From: Streptomyces laculatispora
GTDB lineage: Bacteria; Actinomycetota; Actinomycetes; Streptomycetales; Streptomycetaceae
NCBI RefSeq assembly: GCF_017353455.1
Contig: NZ_JAFMPZ010000082.1
Coordinates: 1-35,974 of the forward strand
Length of the DNA: 35,974 bases
Direction of reading: 5' to 3'
How positions within the stretch are numbered: position 1 is the stretch's first letter; the number at the start of each line of letters is the position of its first letter. The notes below the pieces were generated by a model. It saw only the letters and a list, made by a program, of their open reading frames with translations, searched no databases and was not told the DNA's origin. Position numbers and translations under genes: made by a program. Shown in pieces: positions 9,159 to 19,242 of the stretch.

Positions 9159-10160
9159 TCAGACGGCCGCGTCGACCAGTGCGGTCAGCTCGGCGACGGA
9201 CATCGAGCCGGGTTCGCGTCGTTCCCGGGCGCAGCTGTTCGCGATCCGCCGCAGCACGTCGTTGACCGGGGTGGGTACGCCGTGGAGCCGGCCGAGCAGC
9301 ACGATCTCGCCGTTGAGGTAGTCGGCCTCGATCGTGCCGGTGCCCCGGCTGAGGCTCTGCCACGAGGAGCCGCCGCTGCGCGGGGAGCCGTCGAAGGGTT
9401 CGAAGCGGATCCGGTCGCCGCGCGCCTCGGCCTGTTCGGCCTGGCCCACCGCCTCGGCGCCGGCCGCCTTGAGCACGGCCTGCCCCTCGGCCAGCGCCCT
9501 CCTGAACAGGGCGGTGGCGTCGTCCCCGGTGAGCGGGCCGGTGGCCGCCTCGATGGCGTTGGCCAGGTTGGAGAGCAGCTTGCCGTACTTCCAGCGCATC
9601 ACGTCCGCCACCACGGGGGCGAGCAGCTTCGCCTGCTCCAGGTCGGCGGAGATCCGCCGGGCGGTGTCGTCGGTCCCCGACGGGTAGCGGCCCAGGTGCA
9701 GGATGCCGGTGAGCGGGGTTCCGGCCGCGGACACCTCGCCGGGCCGCACGAAGGTCGCGGGCAGCCAGACGCACATGCCGTACACCCGGTCGAAGCGGCG
9801 CAGCGCGAGGCGTTCGCCTTCCACGCCGTTCTGCGCGCAGATCAGCGGCAGCCGTTCACCGGCCGTGCCGCCGCCCGCCACCGGCCGGGCGCTCCAGGCG
9901 TCGAGTGCGGCGATGCTGTCCTGCGTCTTGACGGCGAGTACGAGGACGTCGTCCGGGGCCAGCGGGAGCGCCTCGGGCCCGTCGACGACGGGGAGCTCGT
10001 GGGTGCGGGTGCCGTCGGGGGTGGCGAGCCGGAGTCCGCCGGTGCGCAGCGCCGCGTACTGGGCTCCGCGGGCCACGAGCACCACGCGGTGGCCCGCCTC
10101 GGCCAGCCGTCCGCCGATGGCGCCGCCGACGGCGCCCGCTCCCACGATGACGTAGCGCAT
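9159..10160 (-). CDS. 2-dehydropantoate 2-reductase family protein (ApbA/PanE-like)
   Basis: A 333-residue NAD(P)-dependent reductase. The N terminus MRYVIVGAGAVGGAIGGRLA is a textbook Rossmann G-x-G-x-x-G. Later landmarks are LVLAVKTQD, CAQNGVEGE and the helical C-terminal domain with the catalytic-type lysine in RWKYGKLLSNLANAIEA. The family reduces ketopantoate to pantoate for coenzyme A, but many actinobacterial paralogues have other keto-acid substrates, so the true substrate is uncertain. The start at 10160 has GGAGGAG upstream. It is divergent from the aldo/keto reductase gene, with 108 bp between the start codons. Confidence 0.88.
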   Translation of the reverse strand: MRYVIVGAGAVGGAIGGRLAEAGHRVVLVARGAQYAALRTGGLRLATPDGTRTHELPVVDGPEALPLAPDDVLVLAVKTQDSIAALDAWSARPVAGGGTAGERLPLICAQNGVEGERLALRRFDRVYGMCVWLPATFVRPGEVSAAGTPLTGILHLGRYPSGTDDTARRISADLEQAKLLAPVVADVMRWKYGKLLSNLANAIEAATGPLTGDDATALFRRALAEGQAVLKAAGAEAVGQAEQAEARGDRIRFEPFDGSPRSGGSSWQSLSRGTGTIEADYLNGEIVLLGRLHGVPTPVNDVLRRIANSCARERREPGSMSVAELTALVDAAV

Positions 10161-10255
10161 CCCGCTCCTCCGCACGGCCACGGCTCGGGGCGGTGGCCCG
10201 CCGCAGTGGCGGCAAGGCACTCCCCCCGGCCGGAAGTTGCATCCACCATCCAGAC

Positions 10256-10261
10256 TACTGT
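10256..10261 (+). promoter_or_regulatory. Possible -10 box of a leaderless aldo/keto reductase transcript
   Basis: TACTGT (a TAnnnT box) ends 7 bp before the ATG at 10269, and there is no purine-rich ribosome site in the 20 bases before that ATG. Together these suggest transcription starting at or next to the start codon. I see no convincing -35 box. Confidence 0.3.
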
Positions 10262-10268
10262 TTCCCTT

Positions 10269-11138
10269 ATGTCTTCCGTGTCCCGATCCCCCGCCGACTC
10301 CTTCCTCCTCGGCGGCGAGCTGCCCGTGCGCCGTCTCGGCTACGGCACCGCCCAGCTGACCGGCCCGGGGTACTGGGGCCGCCGCGGCGAGCGGCAGGAG
10401 TCGCTGACCGTACTCAGGGCGGCGGTCGACCGGGGCGTGACCCTGATCGACACCGCCGACAACTACGGTCCGGGGGTGGCCGAGGAGCTGGTCGCCGAGG
10501 CGCTGCACCCGTACCGCGACGATCTGGTGATCGCGACCAAGGGCGGCGTCGTCCGGACCGGTGACAGCGCCTGGCACATCGCGGGGCGGCCCGAGCAGCT
10601 GCGGGCGATGTGCGAGGCCAGTCTGCGCCGGCTGCGGACCGACCGGATCGACCTCTACCAGCTGCACCGGCTTGATCCGCAGGTGCCGTTGGCCGAGCAG
10701 CTGGGCGCTCTGGACGCGCTGCGGCAGGAGGGTAAGATCCGGTACATCGGTCTGGACACCCTTACCGCCGACCAGCTGGAGCAGGCGCTCTCCCTGACCG
10801 GGATCGCCTCGGTGCAGAACCGGTTCAATCTCCTCGACCGTTCGTCGGACGCGGTACTGAGGGTGTGCGAGGCCCATGGCCTGGCCTTCCTGCCCTGGTT
10901 CCCGCTGGCGAACGGCGCCCTGACCGGCGAAGGCGCCGCGGCGCTCGCCGGGGTCGCGGAACGCCACGGTGCCACCCGCGGGCAGATCGCCCTCGCCTGG
11001 CTGCTGCACCACTCCCCCGCGCTGTGCCCGACTCCGGGCACCGGTTCGCCCCTCCATCTCGCGGAGAACCTCCGGGCCGGGGAGATCCGGCTGTCGACCG
11101 ATGACATGAGCCTCCTGGAGGCGCTCGCATCCGCATGA
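10269..11138 (+). CDS. Aldo/keto reductase
   Basis: A 289-residue NADPH-dependent oxidoreductase with TIM-barrel fold. The catalytic tetrad is readable: D61 and Y66 in LIDTADNYGPG, K91 in VIATKGG, H133 in YQLHRLDP. The cofactor-binding end is represented by CPTPGTGSPLHLAENL. The substrate is unknown. The start ATG 10269 opens directly into the usual MSSVSRSP / LGGELPVRRLGYGTAQ beginning but has no ribosome site, see the proposed leaderless start. The ABC ATPase gene follows 13 bp after the stop, with its AAGGAG overlapping this stop codon, so the two are probably co-transcribed. Confidence 0.92.
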   Translation: MSSVSRSPADSFLLGGELPVRRLGYGTAQLTGPGYWGRRGERQESLTVLRAAVDRGVTLIDTADNYGPGVAEELVAEALHPYRDDLVIATKGGVVRTGDSAWHIAGRPEQLRAMCEASLRRLRTDRIDLYQLHRLDPQVPLAEQLGALDALRQEGKIRYIGLDTLTADQLEQALSLTGIASVQNRFNLLDRSSDAVLRVCEAHGLAFLPWFPLANGALTGEGAAALAGVAERHGATRGQIALAWLLHHSPALCPTPGTGSPLHLAENLRAGEIRLSTDDMSLLEALASA

Positions 11139-13018: not shown

Positions 13019-14221
<1,203 letters not shown>

Positions 14222-14296
14222 GAAGAGGGGGTCTCCTCGTCATTCTTTGTGGGGGGATTGGCCCTCGGCCGGAAGATCTCCGGGGGTTGGCTCGAA

Positions 14297-14325
14297 ACCC
14301 TGACCGATTGACGCGCCCAGATCAA
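14297..14325 (-). promoter_or_regulatory. Possible promoter of the protease gene
   Basis: Read on the minus strand, TTGATC (14320-14325) is followed after 17 bp by CAGGGT (14297-14302), a reasonable vegetative-type pair for Streptomyces. Transcription would begin about 70 bp before the protease ATG. Not confirmed by any second signal. Confidence 0.35.
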
Positions 14326-14407
14326 GACCCACCCTGTGCCTGTGGCCACCTGAGCAAGGTTTCGTCACAAGAAGTCGACCAGCCGCACCCAAGTCCGTCA
14401 CACGCAC

Positions 14408-14426
14408 TGCCCGTTACCGACGGGCA
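14408..14426. repeat. Perfect 7-bp inverted repeat in the protease/P450 gap
   Basis: TGCCCGT (14408-14414) and ACGGGCA (14420-14426) are exact inverse copies separated by TACCG. It lies about 190 bp upstream of the protease gene and could be an operator or a small hairpin. The rest of the 286-bp gap (14222-14507) holds the proposed protease promoter and the P450 terminator and no gene that I can see. Confidence 0.4.
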
Positions 14427-14459
14427 CACCACCGGTCACGCTCCCGGACACAGCACTGC

Positions 14460-14492
14460 GCCCCGTTCGTGACGATGCATCACGAACGGGGC
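14460..14492 (-). terminator. Perfect terminator hairpin of the atropopeptide-type operon
   Basis: GCCCCGTTCGTGA (14460-14472) and TCACGAACGGGGC (14480-14492) form a perfect 13-bp stem with a 7-base loop. It begins 16 bp after the P450 stop on the minus strand. There is no U tract. It closes the two-gene precursor/P450 unit. Confidence 0.8.
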
Positions 14493-14507
14493 GGAGCAGG
14501 GCGGGGT

Positions 14508-15554
14508 TCAGCGTCGGACGATCCGCACTCCGGTCACGCCCATCAGCCCGGCGAGGGGGACACCGGAGGACGCCTGCGCGGGATCCACCGTCAGACCCCC
14601 GCCGCGCACCATGTCGAGCAGCATCTCGGCGAGCGGCATCACCATGTGCCGCCCCCAGCAGCGCTCGGACACATGGCCGAAGGGCAGATAGCCGGGCTGA
14701 TCGTCCGGGTCGAGGCCGTCCCAGCGCTCGGGCCGGAACACATCAGGGTCCTCCCAGAGCGCGGGGTCCCGGTGGCTCAGCAGGGGCAGGAGCAGGATGT
14801 CGTCGCCGGCGCCGATCCGGGGGTCGAGCGCGGCGTACTCCGGGGACGCCCTTCGCAGGATGTTCCAGGAGGGCGGCAGCAACCGCATCGACTCGTGCAG
14901 GATGTTCCGGTTCGAGGTCTCCTCGTCGAACGGCGATCCGAGCCAGAGCGCGTTGGCGACGAGTGTCGAGACGGTGAAGCAGACCGGGGCCGCAGCTCTG
15001 CGGTACAGGCCCATGGCGTGGCGGCGGTCGCCGTAGCCCTTGGCCTCGGCGGTCAGGCCCGCGATGGCGGAGACGGGGGCGCCCGGCCGGAGCCGCCCCG
15101 GCAGGGCCGCCCCGACGACGATGACCGACCAGGTGAGTTTGGGCGTCAGCTCCAGGGCGCGGTCCATGAGGATGCGAAGCCGGTAGGGATCGGCGCCGAG
15201 GATCAGGTCACGCAGGTATACGTGACCCACGCGCGGCCACTCACCGCGGAGGTCGGCGTTCTCGGGAACGGGCTTCTTCAGAGCCGTCCGCACGTCGCGG
15301 CCGATGGCCTGCATGACGGTGGCGGCCTCGGCGCGCGGAATGGACCGCCCGTGGAGGGGCTTGAACGTGGGGCGCTCGTCCTCGGTGGCCGGCCTGGCGG
15401 CGAGGATGCGGTCGGTCAGCCCGGCCCCGGCGACGCCGACGGTGCCGGGGTCGAGCCGGAAGGCCTCCTCGCCCCGGTGGTCTCGCAGGAGCGCCTGGAG
15501 TCTCGGCGCGAAGACGACGTCCCGGGCACGGCTGCCGGTACCGGATATCTGCAT
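14508..15554 (-). CDS. Cytochrome P450, predicted RiPP cross-linking enzyme (atropopeptide/tryptorubin type)
   Basis: A 348-residue P450. The ExxR motif is E221-S-M-R224, the PERF-like segment is FRPERWDG, and the heme-ligating cysteine is C299 in FGHVSERCWGRH. That loop departs from the usual F-G-x-G-x-[HR]-x-C-x-G: the second Gly is Val and the His/Arg is Glu. The helix I region (AAAPVCFTVSTLVANALW) lacks the usual A-G-x-[DE]-T. It is shorter than the usual 400 residues of bacterial P450s. I chose ATG 15554, with GGAG (15561-15564) 6 bp upstream; a TTG four codons earlier overlaps that site. It follows the precursor gene by 114 bp with a hairpin between. In tryptorubin-type clusters a single P450 oxidatively joins the aromatic side chains of the core, and I infer that role here. 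No ferredoxin gene is adjacent. Confidence 0.92.
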   Translation of the reverse strand: MQISGTGSRARDVVFAPRLQALLRDHRGEEAFRLDPGTVGVAGAGLTDRILAARPATEDERPTFKPLHGRSIPRAEAATVMQAIGRDVRTALKKPVPENADLRGEWPRVGHVYLRDLILGADPYRLRILMDRALELTPKLTWSVIVVGAALPGRLRPGAPVSAIAGLTAEAKGYGDRRHAMGLYRRAAAPVCFTVSTLVANALWLGSPFDEETSNRNILHESMRLLPPSWNILRRASPEYAALDPRIGAGDDILLLPLLSHRDPALWEDPDVFRPERWDGLDPDDQPGYLPFGHVSERCWGRHMVMPLAEMLLDMVRGGGLTVDPAQASSGVPLAGLMGVTGVRIVRR

Positions 15555-15578
15555 CGTGTTCTCCAAGAAGCGGGAGGC

Positions 15579-15619
15579 GTCCGTGCCCGGCGGGCCGTGA
15601 GGCCACGCCGGGCACGGAC
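15579..15619 (-). terminator. Intergenic attenuator-like hairpin between precursor and P450
   Basis: A perfect 14-bp stem, GTCCGTGCCCGGCG (15579-15592) with CGCCGGGCACGGAC (15606-15619), continues past a single bulged base into GGCC/GGCC with a 4-base loop, giving 18 pairs in 41 bases. On the transcript it ends about 12 bases before the P450 ribosome site and is followed by a pyrimidine-rich stretch. Such hairpins in RiPP operons are thought to keep precursor mRNA abundant relative to enzyme mRNA by partial termination or 3' end protection. Confidence 0.75.
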
Positions 15620-15668
15620 TCCGACCGAGAGACCGCGCCCCTCGGTCAACTGGACTCGTATGCCGGGT

Positions 15669-15749
15669 TTAGTACCAGAGGTACCAGGCGTACGCCTTCA
15701 GGCTCTTCTCCGGCGTCATCTTTTCCTTCAGCTGAAAAAGGAACTTCAT
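15669..15749 (-). CDS. Atropopeptide (tryptorubin-like) RiPP precursor peptide, core AWYLWY
   Basis: A 26-codon gene, far below normal gene-calling cut-offs. The peptide starts MKFLFQLKEKMTPEKS, continues L-K-A-Y, and ends with Ala21-Trp-Tyr-Leu-Trp-Tyr26 directly before TAA. The ribosome site is strong: GGAGG a few bases before the ATG. The C-terminal hexapeptide is one conservative change from AWYIWY, the sequence of tryptorubin A, which is known to be made from a ribosomal precursor by one P450. A P450 gene follows on the same strand 114 bp later. The leader is Lys/Glu-rich and probably helical. I infer that the P450 cross-links the Trp and Tyr side chains and that the leader is then removed after Tyr20. 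No protease or exporter gene is adjacent. The unmodified hexapeptide (C49H56N8O9) has monoisotopic mass 900.417, and each oxidative cross-link would remove 2.016. Confidence 0.92.
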   Translation of the reverse strand: MKFLFQLKEKMTPEKSLKAYAWYLWY

Positions 15750-16163
15750 AACAGCACCTCCACCTTTTGCTCTGAATTTACTTTCCGGGACATGGCTTGG
15801 CCGTGTTGCGATACAGGCTTCCCATCTCAACAGGAAATCCGCACCACCGCTGACCGCCGAAAGGAGTACAGCTCAGAGCAATTGAAGTTGTCAATGATCT
15901 TCTCGCCGAAAAAAGCGGCCACGCGTTCCGTTTCAGTCGAAACCAAACGAGCCAAATAAAAACGGAGAATTTCCATGCGGTACCCGCATCCGCAGGTCCC
16001 GGCAAGAGCGTGAAGAGGCGGATTCATGCCGATGATTGTCTGAATCACCACTGTTCAGGATGTTTGCCGTGGCTCCGGGCGCTGCCCCGCGACCGGATCG
16101 CCGGCGCCTCGACGCGGGAAAGATACGTACCGGTCGGTAATAGGTTGAGGTTCTCGTGCGAAG
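15750..16163. other. AT-rich gap upstream of the precursor gene; no convincing gene
   Basis: This 414-bp gap separates the end of the sugar-binding lipoprotein gene from the precursor start. By hand count 15721-15780 is 38% GC and 15721-15960 about 49% GC, against roughly 70% in the flanking genes. It holds the proposed precursor promoter. A 49-codon minus-strand frame (15827-15976) crosses that promoter and has no good ribosome site, so I do not call it. Nothing else recognisable is seen. Confidence 0.6.
15865..15894 (-). promoter_or_regulatory. Promoter of the RiPP precursor gene
   Basis: On the minus strand TTGACA (15889-15894), a perfect -35 consensus, is followed after 18 bp by TGTACT (15865-15870), close to TATAAT. 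Transcription would start near 15858, leaving an untranslated leader of about 110 bases before the precursor ATG. A perfect -35 is rare in Streptomyces and suggests strong expression. Confidence 0.6.
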
Positions 16164-17453
16164 TCATCGCTGATAGCGGGCCAGCACCCGGTTCCCGTCC
16201 TGGACCAGACGCTTTCTCAGTTCCGCCGCGTCGATCGCACCGCTGTAGTACTCCTGGAATGCGGGGGTGGCGACCTTGTCCTTCCACTCCGGATAGCCGC
16301 GCACGGACTGGGCGGGAGCGGAACGCAGTGCGCCCGCGAGAGCGGCGCCGGTGGCCCAGCCCCGGTCGGCGGTGTGCAGCGAGGGGTCCGCCAGGGCCGC
16401 CCTGCCGGTCGGCAGCATCCAGTCCCCCTTGGCGAGGCGCACCGTGTTCGCCGGCCGCAGCAGGAAGTCGATGAACTCCACGGCCTCCTTCTTGTGCGGG
16501 CTGTCCTGGGCGACCGACAGGGTCTGCGGGCTCACCCCCTGGGCCAGGCCCGCGCTGCCGGCCGGGGCGGGCAGCACCGTCCACTCGAAGCCCTTCGGGG
16601 CCTGCTCGGCCACCTGCTGGCGGAAGGAGAACCCCAGCGGCACCATGGCGTACTTGCCGCCGAAGAGACCCGGAAGTGTGTCGCCGCCCCCCATGCCGAG
16701 CGCCGTGCGGGCGGCGCTGTGGTCGGTGCCGACCTGGTCGCGGATGGTCCGGGGGACGACGAGATCGCCCTCGTCCATGGCGAGCGTGACCTTTCCGTCC
16801 GCGCCACGGTGAAACAGTTCGCCACCGGCCGAGAGGCCGAGGTTGAGGGTGGCGGAGACCGGTTCCCTGAGCGGCCAGGCCACTCCGTAACGGCCCTTGC
16901 CCGTCAGCTCCTTGGTGATCCGCCGGAACTCCGTCCAGCTCCAGGGCCTCGCCGGGGTCGGGATGCGGACCCCCGAGGCCCTGAGGATCCTGGTGTTGGC
17001 GATCAGGACGCGGGGCTCCTGGAGGAAGGGCACCCCGTAGACACCGCCGTCGAAGGTGCTGGTGCGCCAGCTCTGCTGCGGGATGTCGGCGGTGAGCCGG
17101 TCCGGCAGCAGGGTGCGCAGATCGGCGAGGTAGCCGCCGTAGGCGAAGTCCGCGAGGTCGTCGGACGCGTCATGGATGACATCCGGTGCCTCGTCCCCCT
17201 CGAACGAGGTGAGGAGCTGGTCGTGGACGCTGTCCCAGCTGCCCTGGACGTACTGGACCCGGACATCGGGATGGCTCGCGTTCCATTCCTTCACCAACTG
17301 CTTGTTGGCGTCGACGGACTCCTTCTGCCAGGCCAGCGACTGGAAGCGGATCGTGATCCTCCCGTCCGCCCGGCCGCCGCCCCCGCCGCACCCGGTGAGC
17401 AGCAGGGCCAGTGCGGTGGCCGCCGCGGCTGCCGTACGCAGCACCGCGCGCAT
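16164..17453 (-). CDS. Sugar ABC transporter substrate-binding lipoprotein
   Basis: A 429-residue extracellular solute-binding protein of the carbohydrate family 1 type. The signal peptide MRAVLRTAAAAATALALL ends in the lipobox L-L-T-G-C followed by a Gly linker. The mature part shows the family pattern: ITIRFQSLAWQ, VKEWNASHPDVRVQYVQGSW, PDVIHDASDDLADFAYGGYLADL, and a C-terminal KKEAVEFIDFLL. The ligand is not predictable. The ATG at 17453 overlaps the permease stop by one base (TGATG), so the three genes form one operon in the order permease, permease, binding protein. GAAGAG lies a few bases upstream. Confidence 0.93.
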   Translation of the reverse strand: MRAVLRTAAAAATALALLLTGCGGGGGRADGRITIRFQSLAWQKESVDANKQLVKEWNASHPDVRVQYVQGSWDSVHDQLLTSFEGDEAPDVIHDASDDLADFAYGGYLADLRTLLPDRLTADIPQQSWRTSTFDGGVYGVPFLQEPRVLIANTRILRASGVRIPTPARPWSWTEFRRITKELTGKGRYGVAWPLREPVSATLNLGLSAGGELFHRGADGKVTLAMDEGDLVVPRTIRDQVGTDHSAARTALGMGGGDTLPGLFGGKYAMVPLGFSFRQQVAEQAPKGFEWTVLPAPAGSAGLAQGVSPQTLSVAQDSPHKKEAVEFIDFLLRPANTVRLAKGDWMLPTGRAALADPSLHTADRGWATGAALAGALRSAPAQSVRGYPEWKDKVATPAFQEYYSGAIDAAELRKRLVQDGNRVLARYQR

Positions 17454-18292
17454 CAGCTCTTCACCGCCCCGGCCAGCATGCCGCCCGTGATCCGCCGCTG
17501 GATGACCGCGAAGAGGACGAGCGAGGGAAGGGTGGCGAGGAACGCGGCGGCGGCGAGCGGCCCCAGGTCGCTCGCACCCTCCGCGCCGAGGAAGTGGGTC
17601 AGTACGACCGGCAAGGTCTGCTTCTCCGGTGTCTTGAGCAGGACGAGCGCGAAGAAGAACTCGTTCCATGCGGTGATGAAGGCGAAGAGTGCGGTGGCGA
17701 CGATCCCGGGGGCCAGCAGCGGGGCGGTGACCGAGACGAGCGTCCGCAGCCGGCTCGCGCCGTCGACCGCCGCCGCCTCCTCCAGTTCGGGCGGGACGGC
17801 CCGTACGTATCCGACCAGCATCCACAGCGCGAACGGCAGCGACCAGACGACGTACACCATGATCAGCCCCCACAGCGTGTTGATCAGATGCAGATACTTG
17901 AGGACCAGGAAGAGCGGAATGATCAGCAGGACGAACGGGAACGCCTGGCTGACCACCACCCAGCCGGTGGCGGCGGTGGAGAGCCGCGAACGGTGGCGGG
18001 CCGTCACGTAGGCCATCGGGGTGGCGATGACGACGGCGATGATCCCGGCCGAGACTGCGGCGATCAGCGAGTTGGCGGCGGCCCGGAGCAGCGGCTGTTC
18101 GTCGAAGGCGGCCCGGAAGTTGTCGAGCGTCGGGTGCTGGGGGATCCAGGTGGGGTGCAGGGAGCCCAGCTCGGGTGCCGGCTTGAAGGCGGTGGAGATC
18201 AGCCACACGAACGGGAACGCCAGGAAGACCAGGTAGCACAGGAGCGCGACGTACTGTCCGGCGCGCGCGGTTGTGCGGGTACGCGGACTCAT
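17453..18292 (-). CDS. Sugar ABC transporter permease, MalG-like
   Basis: A 279-residue membrane protein with about six transmembrane segments, starting with a hydrophobic stretch at residues 14-33. The EAA loop that contacts the ATPase is E-E-A-A-A-V-D-G-A-S near residue 180, and the protein ends ITGGMLAGAVKS, a typical MalG-type C terminus. Its start overlaps the stop of the upstream permease by 4 bp (ATGA). It would pair with the MalF-like protein to form the channel. Confidence 0.94.
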   Translation of the reverse strand: MSPRTRTTARAGQYVALLCYLVFLAFPFVWLISTAFKPAPELGSLHPTWIPQHPTLDNFRAAFDEQPLLRAAANSLIAAVSAGIIAVVIATPMAYVTARHRSRLSTAATGWVVVSQAFPFVLLIIPLFLVLKYLHLINTLWGLIMVYVVWSLPFALWMLVGYVRAVPPELEEAAAVDGASRLRTLVSVTAPLLAPGIVATALFAFITAWNEFFFALVLLKTPEKQTLPVVLTHFLGAEGASDLGPLAAAAFLATLPSLVLFAVIQRRITGGMLAGAVKS

Positions 18293-19242
18293 CGGTCCTC
18301 ACCTCCGCCGAGCCGTCCCACGAGGTACACGGCGAGGATCACGGAGATCACCGCGACCATCACACACCCCATCGCCGCGGCATAGCCGAACTGCCCGTAC
18401 CGGAAAGCCTCTTCGTACGCGAAGAGCATCGGCAGCCGGGTACGGCCGCCCGGCCCCCCGTTGGTCAGCACGTAGACCAGGGCGAAGGAGTTGAAGTTCC
18501 AGATGAAGTTGAGGGCGGTGATGGACAGGGCGACCGGCCTGAGCGCCGGCCAGGTGACGGTGCGGAATCGGCGCCAGGCGCCCGCGCCGTCCAGGGCGGC
18601 CGCCTCGTGGAGTTCGTACGGGGTGTTCTGCAGGCCGGCCAGCAGGGCGACCGTGGTCTGCGGCATACCGGCCCAGACCCCGACGAGGATCACCGCCGGC
18701 AGCGCGGTGGCCAGGCCGGTCAGCCAGTCGCGGCCGTCACCGAGTCCCAGATCACGGATGGTCTCGTTGAGGATTCCGGCGTCCGGGTTGTAGACGAGCC
18801 GCCACATGATGCCGACGACCACCTCCGGCATCGCCCACGGGATGATCGCCAGCGCCCTCGCCAGCCACCGCATTCGCAGGTTCTGGCTGAGCAGCAGCGC
18901 CAGGCCGAGTGCCAGCACGAACTGCGGGACGGTGACGCCGACCGCCCACACGAGGCCGATCCTGAACGACTCCCAGAACAGTCCGTCGTGGAGCAGGTCC
19001 TGGAAGTTCAGCACCCCGGTCCACTGGGTGGATCTCGTCCGGCCCGACTGGGCGTCGGTGAAGGACAGCGCGATGCCGTAGAGCAGTGGGCCGACGCTGA
19101 GGACCAGGATCGGAATGAGGGCGGGAAGCACCAGGAACCAGGTACCGGCGCTCCGGTTGATCCGCGCGGACCCCTTGCCGGGCGGGCCGCCGCCCGGCGG
19201 TTCGTGCCGCTCGGACGGGACCGTTGCGCTCGCCAATGTCAT
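18289..19242 (-). CDS. Sugar ABC transporter permease, MalF-like
   Basis: A 317-residue membrane protein. A polar N-terminal tail of about 30 residues is followed by the first membrane segment (GTWFLVLPALIPILVLSVGP) and about five more. The EAA loop reads H-E-A-A-A-L-D-G-A near residue 220. It is the first gene of the importer operon, with AAGGGGG before the ATG. No ATPase gene is included; in Streptomyces such importers are commonly energised by the shared ATPase MsiK. Confidence 0.94.
   Translation of the reverse strand: MTLASATVPSERHEPPGGGPPGKGSARINRSAGTWFLVLPALIPILVLSVGPLLYGIALSFTDAQSGRTRSTQWTGVLNFQDLLHDGLFWESFRIGLVWAVGVTVPQFVLALGLALLLSQNLRMRWLARALAIIPWAMPEVVVGIMWRLVYNPDAGILNETIRDLGLGDGRDWLTGLATALPAVILVGVWAGMPQTTVALLAGLQNTPYELHEAAALDGAGAWRRFRTVTWPALRPVALSITALNFIWNFNSFALVYVLTNGGPGGRTRLPMLFAYEEAFRYGQFGYAAAMGCVMVAVISVILAVYLVGRLGGGEDR

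What the first reader, a model, noticed from the sequence alone, without database searches (positions are those of the whole stretch)
14460..15894. Compact atropopeptide (tryptorubin-type) RiPP locus with a new core, AWYLWY
A 26-codon gene (15669-15749, minus) with a strong ribosome site ends in Ala-Trp-Tyr-Leu-Trp-Tyr right before its stop, and a P450 gene follows on the same strand. Tryptorubin A (AWYIWY) is an established P450-cross-linked ribosomal peptide with non-canonical atropisomerism. Here Ile is replaced by Leu, so the product would be isobaric with tryptorubin A but a different compound. The precursor is too short for most annotation pipelines. Seen: peptide sequence, ribosome site, P450, promoter, hairpins. 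Inferred: cross-linking and leader cleavage.
Basis: partly seen in the sequence, partly recalled or inferred. Interest (0 to 1): 0.93.

Follow-up and report, generated by a model that had tools for sequence, protein, structure and literature searches.

The report
Tryptorubin-type peptide gene pair, common core
This genome carries a real two-gene locus, a 26-residue precursor ending in AWYLWY and its P450 enzyme, that is predicted to make a tryptorubin-like cross-linked peptide; the family is known and the same core recurs in many other bacteria, and the least explored part is a strong RNA hairpin kept between the two genes that would likely set their ratio.

Summary
The frame at 15669-15749 (-) scores 60.5 bits against NCBIfam NF038372, tryptorubin family precursor, cut-off 33. 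Of 80 loci fetched by its P450 (14508-15554, -), 76 show the same kind of precursor upstream. By sequence it is an atropopeptide locus. But of 91 distinct P450s with a readable precursor, 22 (the window included) go with AWYLWY, second to AWYIWY with 26, in two phyla; core position 4 needs at least 22 changes on the P450 tree. The pair is a self-contained cassette: relative G070 has 40 nt in place of window 14431-16162 and no such P450, so the neighbouring subtilase is not part of it. One feature that two family papers do not mention in their main text: a strong hairpin between precursor and P450, beating all shuffles in 74 of 91 distinct gaps, with compensatory changes in the window's group. 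Strong hairpins are also frequent in other same-strand gaps (13 of 32). Product, cross-links and hairpin role are untested.

The parts
14431..16162 (-). Accessory cassette that holds the whole pair; 40 nt stand in its place in G070 (L152)
   Evidence: blastn of the window against L152 and L160; no P450 of this kind in G070, G170, G171, G116
15865..15894 (-). Predicted promoter: TTGACA (15889-15894), 18 nt, TGTACT (15865-15870)
   Evidence: TTGACA invariant in 6 aligned upstream regions; not listed by the consensus scan
15757..15764 (-). Ribosome site of the precursor, GGTGGAGG
   Evidence: sequence; GGAGG kept in the 6 aligned relatives
15690..15749 (-). Leader, 20 residues, with KSLK
   Evidence: translation; NF038372 match over the whole model
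15669..15689 (-). Core AWYLWY and stop codon
   Evidence: translation
15623..15647 (-). First hairpin of the gap
   Evidence: fold of the 114-nt gap, z -4.46, 1 of 200 dinucleotide shuffles as low
15579..15619 (-). Second, stronger hairpin of the gap, with compensatory changes among relatives
15561..15564 (-). Ribosome site of the P450 gene, GGAG
   Evidence: sequence
14508..15554 (-). Atropopeptide-type cytochrome P450, 348 aa
   Evidence: Pfam p450 52.4 bits; relatives and tree; model pLDDT 87.4
14460..14492 (-). Hairpin after the P450, predicted terminator
   Evidence: fold z -4.30, 0 of 200 shuffles as low

Best explanation
This is a minimal atropopeptide (tryptorubin-type) gene cluster: a 26-residue precursor with core AWYLWY and one P450 that is predicted to bind the leader at its KSLK motif and would cross-link the core's aromatic side chains before proteases of the host would remove the leader. 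The predicted product is a cross-linked hexapeptide, or the pentapeptide WYLWY, isobaric with tryptorubin A if three bonds form, but with Leu at position 4. The two genes are likely read from one promoter, and the strong hairpin between them likely ends or protects part of the transcripts after the precursor, so that precursor would exceed enzyme. Shown: the genes, the family match, the conserved layout, the cassette borders, the hairpin and its compensatory changes. Inferred: cross-links, cleavage, transcription, role of the hairpin.
For: NF038372 at 60.5 bits, cut-off 33. Precursor upstream of the P450 in 76 of 80 loci fetched by the P450. P450 in one tree with the P450 of the sva cluster, 58% identical, whose products are known. 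P450 fold and heme loop present. Cassette border and empty site. Hairpin: 74 of 91 distinct gaps beat all 20 shuffles; 6 of 18 pairs with changes on both sides against 1.4 in shuffles; a compact hairpin of -20 kcal/mol or lower in 88 of 91 gaps.
Against: No product, transcript or enzyme data. The nearest characterised P450 in my set is only 58% identical, and TryB itself was not compared. Published relatives range from one bond to four modifications, so three bonds cannot be read from sequence. Strong hairpins are also frequent in other same-strand gaps (13 of 32 at -35 or lower, against 65 of 91), and five loci with a 49-nt gap lack one. The conserved promoter was not listed by the consensus scan.
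Confidence: 0.88

Rival explanations
1. An atropopeptide locus whose P450 makes only one bond (a monocycle like scabrirubin or varsorubin B2a) or whose product is trimmed further, not a tryptorubin-like three-bond peptide.
For: One P450 can give different patterns: sva gives a product with three bonds and one with a single bond, sca a monocyclic tetrapeptide. Phylogeny is reported to be a poor guide to the product.
Against: The core keeps W2, Y3, W5, Y6 as in the tryptorubin core, and lauB1 with such a core gave tryptorubin B. None of this was tested on the window's P450.
Confidence: 0.25
2. The hairpin between the genes is an ordinary strong terminator and the P450 is read from its own promoter, so that the pair is no operon.
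For: Comparable hairpins occur in 13 of 32 other same-strand gaps; the hairpin model also scores on the opposite strand and at unrelated places.
Against: Only 24 nt lie between the second hairpin and the P450 start in the window, and 21 to 24 nt in its nearest relatives, which leaves little room for a promoter. By my rule only 3 of 91 hairpins are followed by four T in eight bases, though terminators without a T run exist in these bacteria (recalled).
Confidence: 0.2
3. The subtilase downstream (13019-14221) is the dedicated leader protease and belongs to the cluster.
For: Same strand, next gene, secreted-type serine protease; PMC11450843 reports proteases near clusters of Xanthomonas.
Against: Present in 170 of 199 genus genomes, near the pair in 3 of 80 loci, present in G070 without the pair, and a strong hairpin separates it from the P450.
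Confidence: 0.04

Closest known systems
Tryptorubin A and the atropopeptides (NCBIfam NF038372; PMC11450843)
   Same: Two genes, short precursor with KSLK and core right before the stop, Trp at core position 2, one family-type P450
   Different: Leu for Ile at core position 4; that variant is itself common in the family
Varsorubin cluster sva of Streptomyces varsoviensis (L112)
   Same: Same layout, hairpin in the gap, P450 58% identical
   Different: Core SWYQWL; different leader
Biarylitides and aminopyruvatide (P450Blt, ApyO)
   Same: RiPP systems in which a P450 links aromatic side chains
   Different: Biarylitide precursors have five residues (abstract of PMC13417212); ApyO model 62.4 bits, cut-off 525; P450Blt 18% identical by fold alignment

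Membership tests
Atropopeptides (definition in PMC11450843) | KSLK-type motif in the leader | tested here: met
   KSLK at residues 15-18 of the precursor
Atropopeptides (definition in PMC11450843) | Trp at position 2 of the core | tested here: met
   AWYLWY
Atropopeptides (definition in PMC11450843) | Family-defining P450 beside the precursor | tested here: met
   Next gene, same strand; in one tree with the P450 of sva and 89 others. TryB itself and the AtropoFinder classifier were not run
Atropopeptides (definition in PMC11450843) | Product with aromatic cross-links in the peptide | not testable with these tools
   needs LC-MS and NMR
NCBIfam NF038372 tryptorubin_fam | Score above the curated cut-off | tested here: met
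   60.5 bits, cut-off 33
Bitryptides (xWxxWx subfamily of the atropopeptides) | Trp at core positions 2 and 5 | tested here: met
   AWYLWY; definition from PMC11450843
Biarylitides | Five-residue precursor | tested here: not met
   26 residues
Aminopyruvatide P450 ApyO (NF050147) | Score above the curated cut-off | tested here: not met
   62.4 bits, cut-off 525

The most novel reading that the evidence does not exclude
Across two bacterial phyla, atropopeptide loci keep a strong, sequence-variable RNA hairpin between precursor and P450. It is a dosage valve: it stops or protects transcripts after the precursor so that a little P450 serves much precursor, and it is a general, so far undescribed regulatory part of this RiPP family.
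Probability: 0.38. Interest if true: 0.4.

Novelty: new member of a known kind. Interest (0 to 1): 0.27.

Why it matters
It corrects the claim of a new core: Leu at position 4 is one of the two commonest states and has come and gone repeatedly, so position 4 is a natural site of variation, while W2, Y3 and W5 are the same in the cores counted here. The predicted Leu product would be isobaric with tryptorubin A, so mass alone would confuse the two in culture extracts. If the hairpin is a dosage valve, it matters to anyone who moves such two-gene clusters into expression hosts; a 100-fold gain was reported when a ribosome site was put before the sva P450 gene (PMC11450843), which fits an enzyme kept low but does not test the hairpin.

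Tried and rejected
New core: rejected by counting. Dedicated subtilase: rejected by the empty site and the subtilase's spread. New RNA family for the hairpin: a covariance model of 11 sequences put its six best hits in 199 genus genomes (47.9 to 65 bits) at atropopeptide loci, but matches of 45.2 bits and less lie elsewhere or on the opposite strand of the same places, and 51 of 199 genomes have one at E 0.01; over 86 fetched sources it gave 41 matches at E up to 1, many in the gap and often on both strands, some elsewhere; Rfam gave no match in 14200-16200 at E up to 1. I therefore call it terminator-like, not a new RNA family. Solved relatives: PDB sequence matches cover only the C-terminal half of the query among the 60 shown, best 42.2 bits; the 50 fold matches shown are P450s by title or as I recall them, TM-score by query length 0.46 to 0.62.

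AWYLWY in print: no paper in the held library holds AWYLWY; WYLWY anywhere gave 7 papers whose listing shows unrelated subjects. Supplements could not be read and most subscription papers are not held, so core or compound may well be listed in the 683-cluster set of PMC11450843. The core letters of amyxirubin are not in that text, so I cannot exclude that it is AWYLWY. What I saw of papers: PMC11450843, outline, passages and three of four parts of its results; PMC12352619, two of six parts and passages; all others, search listings only.

Hairpin in print: 'hairpin', 'stem-loop', 'terminator', 'intergenic' do not occur in the main texts of PMC11450843 and PMC12352619; one search with lanthipeptide and hairpin terms listed nothing on this family. 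That is not proof of absence.

Corrected while checking: one search counted no hairpin followed by four T in eight bases, but its rule took over-long domains; with compact hairpins it is 3 of 91 (L028, L073, L082).

Rows dropped: L001 and L002 (the window itself) from the counts; 5 of 110 loci without a precursor by my pattern; repeated gaps and repeated P450s counted once, which left 91 of 105 in each case. L003-L032 were fetched by the precursor model, so they have a precursor by construction. Only the best 30 precursor matches and the best 80 of 113 loci were fetched. Shuffles keep base but not dinucleotide content. In one search, gaps shorter than 60 nt were extended into the P450 gene, and the 32 background gaps come from a crude gene finder of mine. 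The 11 sequences were picked by me as alignable. The tree is the quick kind, with 29 of 88 inner branches open.

Full report
What is there. On the minus strand the window holds a 26-codon gene, 15669-15749, reading MKFLFQLKEKMTPEKSLKAYAWYLWY and then a stop. A strong ribosome site, GGTGGAGG, lies at 15757-15764. After a gap of 114 nt comes a P450 gene, 14508-15554, 348 aa, with a GGAG site of its own. The stated coordinates are right. The precursor scores 60.5 bits against NCBIfam NF038372, 'tryptorubin family RiPP precursor', over the whole model, cut-off 33, so a public annotation model finds it, and chance is out of the question.

The P450. Pfam p450 matches residues 217-306 (52.4 bits). 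Residues 221-224 are ESMR (ExxR) and 292-301 FGHVSERCWG, the heme loop. An AlphaFold2 model on 50 aligned sequences has mean pLDDT 87.4 and pTM 0.89. The 50 Foldseek rows shown are P450s by title or as I recall them; P450Blt of the biarylitides is among them at 18% identity. The long helix 174-206 holds VCFTVST (191-197) where, as I recall, other P450s have AGx(D/E)T; a search for that motif hits 1 of 91 family members, while C192, F193 and T194 are invariant in the 50 aligned.

Relatives. NF038372 has a match in 44 of 392 genus genomes, the window's own included, and over the cut-off in 42. A scan of species genomes gave 113 relatives of the P450, the best 80 of which were fetched. Of those 80, 76 have a precursor frame with KSLK-like motif upstream; of the 30 loci fetched by the precursor model, 29 have the P450 downstream. 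Some strains occur in both sets. L112 is record NZ_JOBF01000044.1 of Streptomyces varsoviensis; its P450 lies at record 9531-10571, inside the published sva (varsorubin) interval. That ties the window's P450, at 58% identity, to a cluster whose products are known.

Not a new core. Among 91 distinct P450s the cores are AWYIWY 26, AWYLWY 22, AWYFWY 16, AWYGWI 10, AWYHWY 7, and seven rarer ones with ten rows in all. The 22 include the window and one genome of its own species. AWYLWY occurs in Streptomyces, Streptacidiphilus, a Pseudonocardiaceae bacterium, Xanthomonas maliensis, Luteibacter and Burkholderia. On the P450 tree (quick method) position 4 needs at least 22 changes, and the Leu group 10, of which well-supported branches force 7. 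The window's clade mixes AWYLWY and AWYHWY. A swap at position 4 is ordinary evolution in this family.

The cassette. In G166, G313, G179 and G075 the pair lies between an ABC-transporter binding-protein gene and a subtilase. In G070 the DNA on either side is 88-89% identical to the window's, and 40 nt stand in place of window 14431-16162 (L152). In L160 (G170) the interval also lacks the pair, with other DNA of about 600 nt. G070, G170, G171 and G116 have no P450 of this kind, only matches of at most 53.1 bits. So the pair with its promoter and end hairpin is one accessory unit. The subtilase is present in 170 of 199 genus genomes at E 1e-100 and near the pair in 3 of 80 loci, so it is not a dedicated protease. 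PMC11450843 holds that a ubiquitous protease releases the product (passage).

Control elements. TTGACA at 15889-15894 is invariant in six aligned upstream regions of close relatives, with TGTACT 18 nt on; the simple consensus scan did not list it. The end hairpin, 14460-14492, lies in a stretch that folds with z -4.30.

The hairpin between the genes. The 114-nt gap folds with z -4.46 against dinucleotide shuffles into two hairpins, 15623-15647 and 15579-15619. In 74 of 91 distinct gaps the best local fold beats all 20 shuffles; 88 of 91 gaps hold a compact hairpin of -20 kcal/mol or lower. The gap is more stable than the stretch upstream of the precursor in 89 of 91, inside the P450 in 87 of 91, and after the P450 stop in 84 of 91. 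In 11 aligned sequences, one of them from Burkholderia, 6 of 18 pairs show changes on both sides against 1.4 in shuffles (0 of 500 as high), and sliding the partner drops pairing from 94.8% to 45.4% or less. Only 3 of 91 are followed by four T in eight bases; the window's is not. Against: strong hairpins are frequent in other same-strand gaps too (13 of 32 at -35 or lower, against 65 of 91; medians -30.6 and -39.8), five loci with 49-nt gaps lack one, and the window's hairpin model has weaker matches all over the genus. Two family papers do not mention it in their main text. I take it as a leaky terminator or decay barrier that would give more precursor than enzyme; that is inference.

Verdict. 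A sound observation of a known kind of cluster with a common core. Interest is modest; the hairpin is the part worth a bench test.

Noticed in passing
window 14508-15554 and 91 related P450s: Short P450s (commonest lengths 348 and 349 aa) without the usual I-helix motif AGx(D/E)T (1 of 91 has it); CFT at 192-194 is invariant in 50 aligned. How such an enzyme handles oxygen is an open point.
   Followed up: partly
L020, L025, L027, L096, L100: A small group with a 49-nt precursor-P450 gap and no hairpin: a natural contrast for testing what the hairpin does.
   Followed up: no
window 13019-14221 (-): Subtilase with a likely signal peptide; widespread in the genus (170 of 199), so a core-genome neighbour and not part of the cluster.
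   Followed up: yes
window 16164-19242 (-): Sugar-type ABC transporter genes (binding protein and two permeases) conserved on the other side of the cassette in close relatives.
   Followed up: partly
L085 (Burkholderia multivorans WS-FJ9), L076 and L089 (Luteibacter), L073 (Xanthomonas maliensis): AWYLWY precursors beside related P450s in Pseudomonadota, with hairpins in the gap; the L085 hairpin aligns with the window's.
   Followed up: partly
L030, L031, L079 and other loci of that clade: The gap hairpin there has a different but repeated sequence (GACATCGTTGTCC ... and its complement), a long near-perfect inverted repeat, seen in several related loci.
   Followed up: no
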